A stretch of 25,548 nucleotides of DNA from a virus, in the IMG/VR virus record IMGVR_UViG_3300040801_000764, positions 1 to 25,548 of that record; one strand, 5' to 3'. Position numbers and translations under genes: made by a program. Shown in pieces: positions 5,976 through 25,548 of the stretch (positions are counted from its first letter, which is position 1; every line of letters starts with the position of its first letter). A model generated the notes under the pieces. The model had not been told where the DNA came from. It saw only the letters and a program-made list of their open reading frames with translations, and made no database searches.

Positions 5976-7246
5976 TACCCATCACCTTCTATTTCTGGAT
6001 CTAATTGAATATCTATATTATGTCTCACTAAACCTAGAGTAGTCTTATACCCAGTAAGCCCTATCTCTTCTTTTATCTTAATAACTTTCCATAACCCAGA
6101 AACTATATTAAACTTCTTATCTTCTTCCTCGGGTCTATTCATTACAGTCAGGTCAACTAAGTCCGTTGGTAATATGTCAGGGTTACCTATAACCACCAAG
6201 TTTATTGTATTAATTGACATAATTGCTTTTTTAAGTTCATTAATGAATCTGTTTTCTATTCTTTCTAAAGTTCCTGCATCTTCATCTTCTGCCTCTATGA
6301 GTTCTACACTAAATCTAAACTCATCTTTTTTAGGAACTGGTAGGTTAAACCTCTCCAGAGTACTAATAATAGAGTCCCATAGTTTGTCGAATAGTAATTC
6401 ATTAAGTCTATCTTCTATCGTATCTTGTTCTCCTAAGGTTTCTATGAAAAGTGCTGGCACCTTTACAGTTAACCCTTTAATTAGAAAATCATAATTTATT
6501 GTGTTTGTTAGATCTATAACACTGCTATCTAGAGATCCCCCATAAGTGTATTTCCAAACTTTAACTTTTTCACTATGTATACCTTCACGGTCTACATAAG
6601 GTCTGAACATTAGTTGTGTCTTTCCCTCTGGAGTATCATATATCCTAAAGTCCCAAAATTGTCCACTATAGGACGCATCTGGTGTAGAAGCGCTTAAGTT
6701 ACATACAGGTAATATTTTATCTTCTATAAAGGAAGCATCAGTCTCATCTGGTTTTTTATATATACCCCAAGGTAGTTTTAAATTACCTACGTTTATGTTG
6801 CTATTATTTTTCCCTAAATCCCAATTGTTTCTATTAGCAATAGCTACTAAAATGTCTTCTATAGAAGTCTCTCTATCATAGAACTCTGGGGGAAATGTCT
6901 CTCCTACCTGGTTTCCTATCGCACCTATTGCTACCATACAACCTAGGTTATTAAATGTAGAGTTTAGTTTGTTTATAGTCAAGTTGAATGTCTCAGACAT
7001 ATTATCCTCAAAACCATACCTAAATCTTAGCTTACCTTTATTTTTTTGTATAATTGAAAGTACTTTACTACCAGACTTATCAAATAAAGCTAAGTCTACA
7101 TTACTAACAAATTCTGACTTTTTATTATCTAAATTGCCAAGAAATCTGTTGAAGGTCATTCTTACTAAACCATCATTATTGACACTAAAGTCTTTTGATT
7201 CTCCAGTAGATTCCACTTCCATTATTACATTAATTGCTCGGGGCAT
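5975..7246 (-). CDS. Baseplate hub protein (gp27/gpD-like)
   Basis: 423 residues. ATG 7246 is preceded by a near-perfect Shine-Dalgarno, AAGGAGGTG, and lies 17 bases inside the 3' end of the upstream baseplate gene. The N-terminus is a beta-rich stretch (VRMTFNRFLGNLDNKKSEF, then LRFRYGFED with a preceding ...VLSIIQKNKG) like the first tube-like domain of hub proteins, where strands define the ring lumen. The C-terminus has LVVIGNPDILPTDLVDLTVM and then IVSGLWKVIKIKEEIGLTGY, matching the 'GnP.l.pGd.v.v ... G.Y.V..v.H.i...gy.T.l.l.R' pattern of gp27/gpD hubs. The next gene is an OB-fold spike, the normal partner that sits on the hub. In the family, a trimer joins the sixfold tube to the threefold spike. 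Family assignment is from pattern recognition without a search. Confidence 0.65.
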   Translation of the reverse strand: MPRAINVIMEVESTGESKDFSVNNDGLVRMTFNRFLGNLDNKKSEFVSNVDLALFDKSGSKVLSIIQKNKGKLRFRYGFEDNMSETFNLTINKLNSTFNNLGCMVAIGAIGNQVGETFPPEFYDRETSIEDILVAIANRNNWDLGKNNSNINVGNLKLPWGIYKKPDETDASFIEDKILPVCNLSASTPDASYSGQFWDFRIYDTPEGKTQLMFRPYVDREGIHSEKVKVWKYTYGGSLDSSVIDLTNTINYDFLIKGLTVKVPALFIETLGEQDTIEDRLNELLFDKLWDSIISTLERFNLPVPKKDEFRFSVELIEAEDEDAGTLERIENRFINELKKAIMSINTINLVVIGNPDILPTDLVDLTVMNRPEEEDKKFNIVSGLWKVIKIKEEIGLTGYKTTLGLVRHNIDIQLDPEIEGDG

Positions 7247-18509: not shown

Positions 18510-18533
18510 ATATACTCCCCTCTTTAAGTAAGA

Positions 18534-18583
18534 TGTTTAGATATATAAATATAGGTTAGTAATTTTATTTATATATCTAAACA
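18534..18583. repeat. Exact 18-bp inverted repeat with 14-base spacer
   Basis: The arms TGTTTAGATATATAAATA (18534-18551) and its exact reverse complement (18566-18583) enclose a 14-base spacer. The element lies in the intergenic region between the capsid gene and the acidic 382-aa gene, 25 bases upstream of the latter's ATG. Each arm contains TATAAATA, pointing in opposite directions. As RNA it could form an 18-bp AU stem followed by UCUUACUU, weaker than a classic terminator. It could instead be a promoter/operator site or a processing site. Confidence 0.75.
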
Positions 18584-18592
18584 GGTATTCGA

Positions 18593-18614
18593 GAGAACAC
18601 CCAAAGGTGTCCTC
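18593..18614 (-). terminator. Hairpin downstream of the capsid gene (weak terminator or RNA processing/stability element)
   Basis: On the minus strand GAGGACACC (18614-18606) pairs with GGUGUUCUC (18601-18593) across a UUUG loop: nine pairs, one of them G-U. It lies 35 bases past the capsid stop. The bases after it (UCGAAUACCUGUUUAG) are not a clear U-run, so a full intrinsic terminator is doubtful; it may protect the capsid mRNA 3' end. Confidence 0.5.
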
Positions 18615-18648
18615 AAGAAATACTCTGATTATTTATGTAATACTATTC

Positions 18649-20331
18649 TTAGCTAGGGAATGCTGGAGCTGTTGCTTCAGAAGCGTCAGTTCCTAATACA
18701 CCCATATCTGAAGTAGTACCATCTTTAGTTACTAATAATACTGGTTGAGCCATAGTGTCATTAATGATTCTACCTCTTACGAAATAGTTAGCATTAGTAA
18801 CAAGCTTACCATAAGACATAGTATAAGCTCTACGGATAACGAAGTCATCTAGAGTAACTGGTTGTGTAGCAACTACTGGAATGTAAGGTGCGAACACGAT
18901 ACCTGCGTCTAGGTTATCTTTGTCATTTTTATAGATTACTGCCCAATCATTTTCACCAAGTGATGGAATAGCAATAACTTTGATGTCTTTTAATTTACCA
19001 ATAACTGTTGGTCCACCTAATTGTGATCCATAGTTACTTCCTTGGAAATCGTCTAATGTTTCAACGATAGTTTGTGCGTTAACACCAACTAGTAATACAT
19101 TACCACGAACACGTTTAGATACTTTGTAGATATAGTTTGAAGCACCTACGATTGCATCTCTGAATGATTGTTTGTGGAATTGATATAAACCGTTAGCAAC
19201 GCCTCCGCCTCTATTCCAGATTACTTGAACAGGAGCTGAGTTCATAATTTCAAATACGAAGTCTAAATCTGTTTCACGTTTAAGTTCGAACATTGCTGAT
19301 TCAGCAAGTTTATCTTCTAATTTTACACCGAACTGTGCTTCGAAACCTACACCAGCTTGGAATGAGAAATTAGTTTTAATTGTTCTTGCTTTAGCAACGA
19401 TGTCTCTTGAATCAACGTCAGCATTTAATTCAGGAACTTCTGTTGGAGCATACTTGTTGTCATATGAGTAAGTAATTTTTAGTCCTGGATCCCAACCGTC
19501 TTCATCTTTAGCGATGTCGAAAGTTACTTGAATTGAAGTTGCATCTGCTGTTACAACACCGTTAGTAATTGCGATTTCAGTTCCATCTGATTCTGTGTAA
19601 ACACCAGTGAAAGCTGTGTTAGTTGACCATGTAAGTTCTGCATTTTCGATTTGCACTGATTTTGCAATAAGTGGAGCCCATAAAACTTTTGAGCCTGAGT
19701 CATATTCGTTGTGATCTGTATCATAAGTTAATTGTGCATCTGCAATGTTAGGTAAGTTAGTTAAGTATGATGTATAGTTCACGTCAGTGTTAATTTCGAA
19801 TGGTGTAATTAATTCGTCTCCTTCAGAAACATTACCTTTATCGCTACCAGCGATAGTGTTATAATAGAAAATCATAGCTTTTTCAGTTTTGATCGGTTGT
19901 GTTGAAGCAATTTCAGTAACAATTAAGTTAGGGAAATATCCGAAGAAAATGTCGAAGTATGTTTTCATTAATCCAACACCAGCACCTTGTCCAGTTACGC
20001 CAGAAACGGCTGGGCCTGCTTGTGTTGCTTCGTGTAGCATTTTTACAGCATTAGTCATATTTTCAGCTAATGTTGTATATAAATATTTTTGTTCTTTTGT
20101 TTCGAACTGTGCAGTTCTTTGTTTGATGTCCTCTGTAATAGTTCTAGGTTGTCTTTTATTTTTGTCGCCTAAAAGAGTTTCTTTAACCACGCGTCTATCT
20201 TTAGTACCTTCATTCAGGTTCTTAGAATAAACAGGTCTTTTAATTCTTTTTTTAGCGGCTTCTAATTTAGCTGCACGTTCACGCTCTTGTCTGCGTTCCT
20301 TGATTTTATCAAGGATTTCTTGTTTTGTCAT
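18649..20331 (-). CDS. Major capsid protein (T4 gp23-like)
   Basis: 560 residues; Shine-Dalgarno AAAGAGGAG before ATG 20331. The first ~65 residues are highly basic (ERRQERERAAKLEAAKKRIK), as in the delta region of gp23-type capsid proteins that is removed during maturation. The mature part opens with helices (LAENMTNAVKMLHEATQAG) and then GLMKTYFDIFFGYFPNLIVT, EIASTQPIKTEKAMIFYYN, which match the gp23 pattern of 'P.li..ivg.qPm..p.g.if...'. The C-terminus has the P-domain and A-domain-like segments NVLLVGVNAQTIVETLDDF and GIVFAPYIPVVATQPVTLDD, then MSYGKLVTNANYFVRGRIIN. Candidate cleavage points for the gp21-type protease are ITE67 and LAE90. The codon choice is more regular than that of the neighbouring acidic genes, as expected for a highly expressed protein. 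Confidence 0.92.
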   Translation of the reverse strand: MTKQEILDKIKERRQERERAAKLEAAKKRIKRPVYSKNLNEGTKDRRVVKETLLGDKNKRQPRTITEDIKQRTAQFETKEQKYLYTTLAENMTNAVKMLHEATQAGPAVSGVTGQGAGVGLMKTYFDIFFGYFPNLIVTEIASTQPIKTEKAMIFYYNTIAGSDKGNVSEGDELITPFEINTDVNYTSYLTNLPNIADAQLTYDTDHNEYDSGSKVLWAPLIAKSVQIENAELTWSTNTAFTGVYTESDGTEIAITNGVVTADATSIQVTFDIAKDEDGWDPGLKITYSYDNKYAPTEVPELNADVDSRDIVAKARTIKTNFSFQAGVGFEAQFGVKLEDKLAESAMFELKRETDLDFVFEIMNSAPVQVIWNRGGGVANGLYQFHKQSFRDAIVGASNYIYKVSKRVRGNVLLVGVNAQTIVETLDDFQGSNYGSQLGGPTVIGKLKDIKVIAIPSLGENDWAVIYKNDKDNLDAGIVFAPYIPVVATQPVTLDDFVIRRAYTMSYGKLVTNANYFVRGRIINDTMAQPVLLVTKDGTTSDMGVLGTDASEATAPAFPS

Positions 20332-24409: not shown

Positions 24410-24637
24410 TTACTCTAATCTTCTAACTTGATAAGCTCTAAGCCCTTTATCCTCAAAATCTTTATATAGGAATTCAACTTCTTCTCCGACCTCTAAGGTC
24501 TTTTTGCCTTCCATAATGATTTGAGTATAGTGAACATAAATATCACTATCAAGATCGTCTTCACACGAAATAAAGCCATAACCTCTTGCTGGGTTAAAAC
24601 TTTTAACGATTCCTCTAGCTTGTTTTATTTCTGCCAT
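24410..24637 (-). CDS. Cold-shock domain protein (CspA family)
   Basis: 75 residues, a normal length for this family, with Shine-Dalgarno AGAGGT before ATG 24637. It opens with GIVKSFNPARGYGFIS, containing the RNP1-like motif (family K-x-G-F-G-F-I; here R-G-Y-G-F-I), then the RNP2-like motif DIYVHYTQI (family VFVHFS), and ends with VGEEVEFLYKDFEDKGLRAY. These are the nucleic-acid-binding strands of a five-stranded OB-fold. Family members bind single-stranded RNA or DNA and melt RNA structure. It begins 121 bases downstream of the reverse transcriptase stop, behind a possible promoter and hairpin leader. In RNP1, the second aromatic is Tyr rather than Phe, a common conservative change. Confidence 0.9.
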   Translation of the reverse strand: MAEIKQARGIVKSFNPARGYGFISCEDDLDSDIYVHYTQIIMEGKKTLEVGEEVEFLYKDFEDKGLRAYQVRRLE

Positions 24638-24689
24638 ATCTGCTACCTCTTCCTTCTTGTATTTATTTTTGTGTCTTTTATCTTCTTTC

Positions 24690-24756
24690 GGTGTGTTCTA
24701 TACACCCCTACACTATATTATATGTATTATAATTATTAAACTCGCTTGTTTTTCAA
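24690..24756 (-). promoter_or_regulatory. Possible promoter and hairpin leader for the cold-shock gene
   Basis: On the minus strand TTGAAA (24756-24751) and TATAAT (24731-24726) are separated by 19 bases, slightly long for a sigma-70-type promoter; a second TATAAT lies at 24722-24717. Downstream, GGTGT (24706-24702) can pair with ACACC (24694-24690) to make a small hairpin at about the start of the leader, 53 bases before the ATG. Cold-shock mRNAs often have structured leaders. The TTGAAA overlaps the end of the reverse transcriptase gene region. Confidence 0.35.
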
Positions 24757-24758
24757 AA

Positions 24759-25548
24759 CTAATTCAATTTATAGTACTCATTTACTAATGTTTTGTATCC
24801 TAGGCGCTTAATATCCTCATAAGATAGCCTATAAAACTTCTTACCCTTATGCCAAGTCCCACTATCTAAATACCTTATACAGTCCACAAAGTATCTGTCT
24901 AAAAAATGGATTGACTCTGTGGTATTAATATTTGGTAAGTACCACCTAGACCAATTTATAGAATCTTCTTGGTCGGAGTACAGTTTAAAATTTATCTTCT
25001 TGATATAGTCTCTTAGTGCAACTTCCTTTTTAACATGCCTTCTTAGCATCCATTGTCTGTACCACTTGGCTCTTCTCTTGAAACGGGATTTCATTTTAGC
25101 CTTAGCTTTTTTAGATATATCTATTGTCTTGTCTTGGAATAGAAATCCTAAAAAAGTAATACCATCTTTGATGTTCATTGTCTTCATCTTCTTAGGGTTA
25201 AAAGCAATATCTAAATTACTTATTTGACTCTTAAAATACTCAAGAGCTTCAACACCAACAGTTAGAGTGTCATCCGCATATCGAATATATTTATAACCCT
25301 TCTCAAGCATTTTCTTATCTACTTCGTCCATGTAGATATTTGCGAGTATCCCTGATACTGGACTGCCTGCCATAACACCTTTATTATGAACTTCTATAAT
25401 ATTCCCTTTGAAATAAACTCTAGGTTCTCTTAATAGCCTCATTAGAAAATCTACTAGGTAAGAATCTTCAGTAAAGAAATCTTTTAGTTTTTCTTCTAGT
25501 CTGTCTAAAGGTATCGAATTAAAGTAGTCTGAAAAATCATTTTTATAA
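24759..25548 (-). CDS. Reverse transcriptase, C-terminal part (runs off right edge)
   Basis: The frame stays open from base 25548 to a TAG at 24759, giving 262 visible residues; the first methionine at 25442 is internal because clear homology extends upstream. Motifs in order: YKNDFSDYFNSIPLDRLEEK (palm motif A; the D of DFSDYF is a likely metal ligand), KGVMAGSPVSGILANIYMDE (motif B), YIRYADDTLTVG (motif C, catalytic YADD), FNPKKMKTMNIKDGITFLGF (motifs D/E). After this there is a basic thumb-like region (KSRFKRRAKWYRQWMLRRH) and an end with WSRWYLPNINTTESIHFLDR, GYKTLVNEYYK. Motif B lacks both the SQ of diversity-generating-retroelement enzymes and the PQG of group II intron enzymes, and no maturase or HNH domain follows. 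A stand-alone phage/defence-type RT is most likely; the exact group is open. Confidence 0.88.
   Translation of the reverse strand, partial: YKNDFSDYFNSIPLDRLEEKLKDFFTEDSYLVDFLMRLLREPRVYFKGNIIEVHNKGVMAGSPVSGILANIYMDEVDKKMLEKGYKYIRYADDTLTVGVEALEYFKSQISNLDIAFNPKKMKTMNIKDGITFLGFLFQDKTIDISKKAKAKMKSRFKRRAKWYRQWMLRRHVKKEVALRDYIKKINFKLYSDQEDSINWSRWYLPNINTTESIHFLDRYFVDCIRYLDSGTWHKGKKFYRLSYEDIKRLGYKTLVNEYYKLN

What the first reader, a model, noticed from the sequence alone, without database searches (positions are those of the whole stretch)
24759..25548. Stand-alone reverse transcriptase beside a phage head gene cluster
The visible palm domain has an intact YADD and clear motifs A to E, but motif B reads MAGSPVSGILANIYM, not the SQ type of diversity-generating retroelements nor the PQG type of group II introns. 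The chain ends with a ~110-residue basic thumb and a GYKTLVNEYYK tail and no endonuclease. It precedes head genes on the same strand. Such RTs may belong to uncharacterised or anti-phage-like groups; a phage carrying one next to its capsid genes could use it for defence against rivals, or for making cDNA.
Basis: partly seen in the sequence, partly recalled or inferred. Interest (0 to 1): 0.62.

Follow-up and report, generated by a model that had tools for sequence, protein, structure and literature searches.

The report
Phage core-gene relative of UG26 transcriptases
A T4-like phage lineage carries, at a fixed place beside its capsid genes, a reverse transcriptase related to a bacterial (candidate antiviral) group called UG26, kept about as well as the capsid protein but without the partner RNA that always accompanies the bacterial enzymes.

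Summary
Window 24759-25547 (-) encodes the last 262 residues of an intact reverse transcriptase (RT), cut off by the end of the record. Full-length relatives (392-397 aa) occur in five other phage contigs. It is not a group II intron, DGR or retron RT. The five copies scanned match the PADLOC model RT_UG26 best: 307-327 bits for four full-length copies, 257 for the window fragment, next best under 122. All six form a 100/100 clade, sister to bacterial UG26 from Lachnospiraceae (joint clade 100/99, about 32% identity).

Every bacterial UG26 locus with enough flank (25 of 25) has the structured RNA RT-5 (Rfam RF03026) just upstream. That RNA was found in none of the six phage records.

In all six phages the RT sits in the same slot, just before the only cold-shock-protein gene and the T4-type head genes. 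Its divergence follows that of the capsid protein (r=0.65, p=0.014). Catalytic residues are intact. It therefore looks like a core phage gene, not swappable defence cargo.

Most likely it is a functional, phage-fixed UG-type RT that makes cDNA from a non-RT-5 RNA. Whether it excludes rivals or serves the phage's own cycle is open. UG26 RTs in viruses were already reported (PMC10504277).

The parts
24759..25547 (-). Reverse transcriptase, C-terminal 262 residues (N-terminal ~133 residues lie beyond the record)
   Evidence: Open frame; RVT_1; RT_UG26 257 bits on the fragment, 307-327 bits on full-length relatives
25512..25547 (-). Motif A YKNDFSDYFNSI
   Evidence: Translation; invariant KxDxxDYFNSI across phage and one bacterial UG26
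25329..25373 (-). Motif B MAGSPVSGILANIYM
   Evidence: Translation; bacterial UG26 has the matching MAGxPxSxxxANxYL
25269..25280 (-). Catalytic YADD (motif C)
   Evidence: Translation; bacterial UG26 mostly YSDD
25143..25154 (-). FLGF (motif E region), followed by ~127-residue thumb/C-terminal part
   Evidence: Translation; 13 of 14 C-terminal columns conserved in bacterial UG26 are kept in the phages
24638..24758 (-). RT-to-CSP spacer; AT-rich promoter-like TATAATATAGTGTA at 24709-24722 and a small hairpin; no RT-5 RNA
24410..24637 (-). Cold-shock protein (CSD) gene; the only one in each of the six phage records and always next after the RT
   Evidence: PF00313
22357..24093 (-). Putative prohead protease/scaffold (identified by position only)
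   Evidence: Same slot as the annotated T4-type peptidase in LIS04; no Pfam or PHROG hit
18649..20331 (-). Major capsid protein, Gp23 type
   Evidence: PF07068 88.7 bits; phrog_138

Best explanation
A catalytically intact phage RT, sister to bacterial UG26. UG26 is a UG-family RT group, taken here to be Class 2-like; that step is inferred. An ancestor of this T4-like phage lineage probably took it from a Bacillota host (inferred). It became fixed between the late genes and the cold-shock protein/head cluster. Shown: placement, intact active site, fixed locus, sequence constraint, no RT-5 RNA in the sampled phage DNA. Inferred: it is made during infection and copies an RNA that is not RT-5 (encoded elsewhere in the phage, or a transcript of host or rival) into cDNA, as characterised Class 2 UG enzymes do. 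The cDNA most likely acts as a resident superinfection-exclusion or takeover device. That last step is the weakest.
For: RT_UG26 best for all five copies scanned: 307-327 bits full length against under 122 for any other model; unrelated viral RTs give UG26 at most ~92 bits. L007's RT gave 314 bits in a genome search with the same model. Tree: phage clade 100/100, sister of 26 bacterial UG26. NCBIfam group II 78-109 bits against cut-off 300. Fixed locus in 6 of 6 records that reach the site. RT-MCP co-divergence r=0.65, p=0.014. dN/dS ~0.1 in the two pairs where dS is measurable. Ribosome-binding-like sites before the start in five relatives (read by eye). 13 of 14 C-terminal and 7 of 8 motif-A columns conserved in bacterial UG26 are kept. 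AlphaFold model pLDDT 89 with near full-length matches to RT structures. DRT2, DRT9, DRT10 and DRT3a use ncRNA templates (PMC12632851, PMC13174585).
Against: I found no published function for UG26, so the defence step rests on other groups. That UG26 belongs to Class 2 was not shown here: the tree has one long-branch UG17 and no DRT2 or DRT9. No partner RNA for the phage enzyme was found. A gene as fixed as this one need not be for exclusion. All records are fragments. The closest fold by Z is a group II intron RT, so fold alone does not separate the classes.
Confidence: 0.45

Rival explanations
1. Domesticated RT needed for the phage's own cycle, for example cDNA made from its own transcripts or RNA handling together with the adjacent cold-shock RNA chaperone, with no role against rivals.
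For: Present in all sampled members, at one locus, about as conserved as the capsid protein; one CSP gene per record, always adjacent.
Against: No RNA target or product known; adjacency to CSP may only reflect stable gene order; CSP identity does not track MCP identity significantly (r=0.27).
Confidence: 0.33
2. Counter-defence: the phage enzyme interferes with host UG26/RT-5 systems, for example by forming inactive complexes or competing for RT-5 RNA.
For: UG26 found in about 10% of 397 sampled genomes of the L046 family; phage enzyme lacks RT-5 of its own in sampled DNA yet keeps UG26-conserved C-terminal residues.
Against: Host unknown; active site intact, which a decoy would not need; half of the finger-region residues conserved in bacteria are lost.
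Confidence: 0.12
3. Group II intron, DGR or retron RT that has strayed into the phage.
For: RVT_1 fold; best VIA-align match is a group II RT (Z 29.3).
Against: Profile scores, tree, no intron RNA in the RT-flanking phage sequence scanned at gathering thresholds, no A-biased repeats, motif B not SQ.
Confidence: 0.03

Closest known systems
Bacterial UG26 RTs (PADLOC RT_UG26, PDLC03764)
   Same: Same length, full-length profile match, MAG[ST]P motif B, shared C-terminal signature ending GY..LV..YY; sister clade
   Different: About 32% identity; phage RYADD and KGVMAGSPxxGILANxxM; no RT-5 RNA upstream; fixed in a phage head-gene cluster
RT-5 RNA (Rfam RF03026)
   Same: Marks the upstream region of all 25 bacterial UG26 loci with enough flank
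   Different: Not found in any of the six phage records
UG26 RTs reported in cold-seep viruses (PMC10504277)
   Same: UG26-class RTs in viral contigs, function unknown
   Different: The main text names the class only; here a defined T4-like lineage, fixed synteny and absence of the cis RNA are shown. Whether the same sequences are involved was not tested
DRT9 (UG28), DRT10 (UG17), DRT2, DRT3a
   Same: UG RTs that use ncRNA templates to make repetitive cDNA (PMC12483538, PMC12632851, PMC13174585)
   Different: Low profile scores for the phage RT; no SLATT gene recognised among the few neighbours scanned
Bacillus SP-15 / Listeria LIS04 phages
   Same: Nearest cultured capsid relatives (28-29% MCP identity) with the same order of protease, MCP, sheath, tube
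   Different: Ribonucleotide reductase genes, not an RT and CSP, precede the protease

Membership tests
UG26 RT clade | Full-length best match to the UG26 profile | tested here: met
   307-327 bits over 1-395/398 in full-length relatives, next best under 122; fragment 257 bits
UG26 RT clade | Groups with bacterial UG26 in a tree | tested here: met
   Joint clade 100/99, phage clade 100/100 as sister; tree lacks DRT2, DRT9 and UG27
UG26 plus RT-5 two-part system | RT-5 RNA immediately upstream of the RT | tested here: not met
   25/25 bacterial loci with flank have it; none of 6 phage records; upstream gap in phages only about 10-50 nt
Class 2 UG / DRT-type systems | ncRNA-templated, repetitive cDNA synthesis | not testable with these tools
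   Needs biochemistry; other groups per PMC12632851
DRT10 (UG17) | UG17 profile as best match | tested here: not met
   UG17 72-103 bits against 521 for a true UG17
DRT10 (UG17) | Adjacent SLATT gene | tested here: inconclusive
   The few neighbours scanned gave holin or no hit, none SLATT; not all neighbours of all six RTs were scanned
Group II intron RT | Profile over curated cut-off | tested here: not met
   78-109 bits, cut-off 300
Group II intron RT | Intron RNA around the gene | tested here: not met
   No Rfam intron at gathering threshold in window, L002-L005, L007, L078, L079
Diversity-generating retroelement | Template/variable repeat pair with adenine-biased mismatches | tested here: not met
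   None in six records, which are fragments
Diversity-generating retroelement | SQ-type motif B | tested here: not met
   MAGSPVSGILANIYM
Retron | Retron RT profile over cut-off | tested here: not met
   St85 42-52 bits, cut-off 235
Retron | msr-msd RNA | tested here: inconclusive
   No Rfam hit at gathering threshold; msr-msd not sought specifically

The most novel reading that the evidence does not exclude
A DRT-type reverse transcriptase has become an essential or near-essential core gene of a lytic T4-like phage lineage, freed from its ancestral RT-5 RNA and using a different RNA, perhaps with the adjacent cold-shock chaperone, to make cDNA during infection.
Probability: 0.3. Interest if true: 0.75.

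Novelty: new variant of a known kind. Interest (0 to 1): 0.5.

Why it matters
Characterised UG-type RTs are studied as bacterial antiviral systems. A phage lineage that keeps such an enzyme as a fixed gene beside its capsid genes, without the RNA always found next to its bacterial relatives, raises two testable questions: what a DRT-type RT does for a phage, and what it copies when its usual RNA is gone. The strict RT-5/UG26 pairing also gives a ready candidate partner RNA for the bacterial UG26 group.

Tried and rejected
Group II, DGR and retron readings: rejected on profiles, tree, RNA families and repeats. RT-5 in phages: sought with Rfam, an own covariance model and a pattern, none credible. 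ncRNA overlapping the RT coding sequence: no strong local excess of synonymous conservation, mean ratio 1.05, highest 25-codon window 1.31. RT-CSP spacer as a shared ncRNA: only a promoter-like motif is shared; the large structured leader occurs in L002 alone. Fixed upstream partner protein in bacterial UG26: ten upstream genes gave no common Pfam family. UG27 reference sequences: none found in 249 genomes and no control rang, so the tree lacks them. Cultured phages carrying this RT: none; best phage hits 21-31% identity; no near DNA match to the window. Fold search does not separate RT classes.

Full report
WHAT IS THERE. The window is a 25,548-bp virus record that ends inside the RT gene. 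The frame 24759-25547 (-) gives 262 residues with motifs A, B, YADD and FLGF. Close relatives were found only in five IMG/VR contigs; they are 64-74% identical to the window RT over its 262 residues and 55-60% to L002 at full length. Full-length proteins are 392-397 aa with ribosome-binding-like sites. No domain beyond RVT_1 was found.

WHICH FAMILY. PADLOC places the five copies scanned in RT_UG26; L007's copy gives 314 bits with the same model. The model gives at most 92 bits to six other viral RTs and 102 to a UG17 enzyme, but 457-585 bits to the typical bacterial UG26 in Lachnospiraceae, a few divergent ones scoring less. The maximum-likelihood tree puts the phage RTs in one 100/100 clade, sister to 26 bacterial UG26, away from group II and other viral RTs. 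Mean phage-bacterial identity is 32%. The tree has only one UG17 (a long branch) and no DRT2, DRT9 or UG27 sequences, so the placement within UG rests on profiles. That UG26 is Class 2 is my inference.

THE BACTERIAL RELATIVES. 41 of 397 sampled genomes of the L046 family have a hit at E<=1e-40, four of them weak, near 1e-41. Aligning upstream regions showed a conserved element. nhmmer finds it in 24 of 24 loci with enough flank; L058, L059 and L061 were not in its training set as full copies. L046 also has it. It is Rfam RT-5 (RF03026), 68-92 bits in the four loci scanned. Three helices, including a crossing helix (columns 35-41 with 95-101), are 97.9% paired with changes on both sides in 15 of 20 pairs, so RT-5 contains a pseudoknot. 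I did not check whether Rfam already draws this.

THE PHAGE LOCUS. In all six phages the order is RT, cold-shock protein, (small genes), protease/scaffold, Gp23-type capsid. Every contig that reaches the site has the RT; the others stop short. Each record has one CSD gene, always next to the RT. RT and capsid identities correlate across 15 pairs (r=0.65, permutation p=0.014), and RT identity (55-74%) is close to that of the capsid (59-80%) and mostly above the scaffold (39-69%). dS is mostly saturated; where measurable, dN/dS is 0.09-0.12. No tyrosine integrase was found and the 82-kb record carries 26 tRNAs and a tmRNA, which fits lytic large phages but is not proof. The nearest cultured capsid relatives, SP-15 and LIS04, have ribonucleotide reductase genes before the protease and no RT there.

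NO RT-5 IN THE PHAGES. Rfam, an own covariance model and a pattern gave nothing credible. The gap upstream of the RT is only about 10-50 nt and the coding sequence shows no clear hidden RNA constraint. The records are fragments, so a distant copy is not excluded.

MECHANISM. Shown: intact RT, UG26 sister clade, fixed locus, sequence constraint, cis RNA missing. Established for other groups: DRT2, DRT9, DRT10 and DRT3a copy ncRNAs into repetitive cDNA for antiviral defence (PMC12483538, PMC12632851, PMC13174585). Inferred: the phage enzyme makes cDNA from a different RNA. I lean slightly to a resident exclusion or takeover function, because that is what characterised relatives do, but fixation as a core gene makes an own-cycle role nearly as likely. 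The AlphaFold model (pLDDT 89) matches group II, G2L4, DGR, DRT9 and DRT2 enzymes over most of its length and does not decide between them.

NOVELTY. UG26 RTs in viruses have been mentioned without function (PMC10504277). The defined phage lineage with fixed synteny, capsid-like conservation and missing RT-5 RNA, and the 25/25 UG26/RT-5 pairing, were not found in the papers I could search; the main UG survey (NAR 2022) was not held.

Noticed in passing
L002:10806-11054 and L078:3772-3996: A ~210-nt strongly folded leader RNA (z -7.1 and -8.5) occurs twice in the 82-kb phage record, with a constant core and variable helices, directly after a promoter-like TATAATATAGTGTAAGGG; no Rfam match, and the exact core is in no other IMG/VR contig.
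   Followed up: partly
window 18510-18648: A structured stretch follows the capsid gene in all six phages (z about -3 to -8): one terminator-like hairpin and, in four of them, a long AT-rich inverted repeat.
   Followed up: partly
L079:3714-10206: 26 tRNA genes and a tmRNA gene (tag read as GNTHFSFA) in the 82-kb phage record.
   Followed up: no
L047-L071 upstream regions; L046:5814-5961: Rfam RT-5 RNA precedes all 25 bacterial UG26 RTs with enough flank and forms a covarying pseudoknot.
   Followed up: yes
L002:2269-2568, 6040-6678; L081:6843-10015: Long arrays of imperfect repeats in phage genes (in L002, EYDxxGNxVYYED-type units).
   Followed up: no
L011-L045: Many other viral RTs surfaced in the scan; those put in the tree lie apart from the UG26 group.
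   Followed up: no
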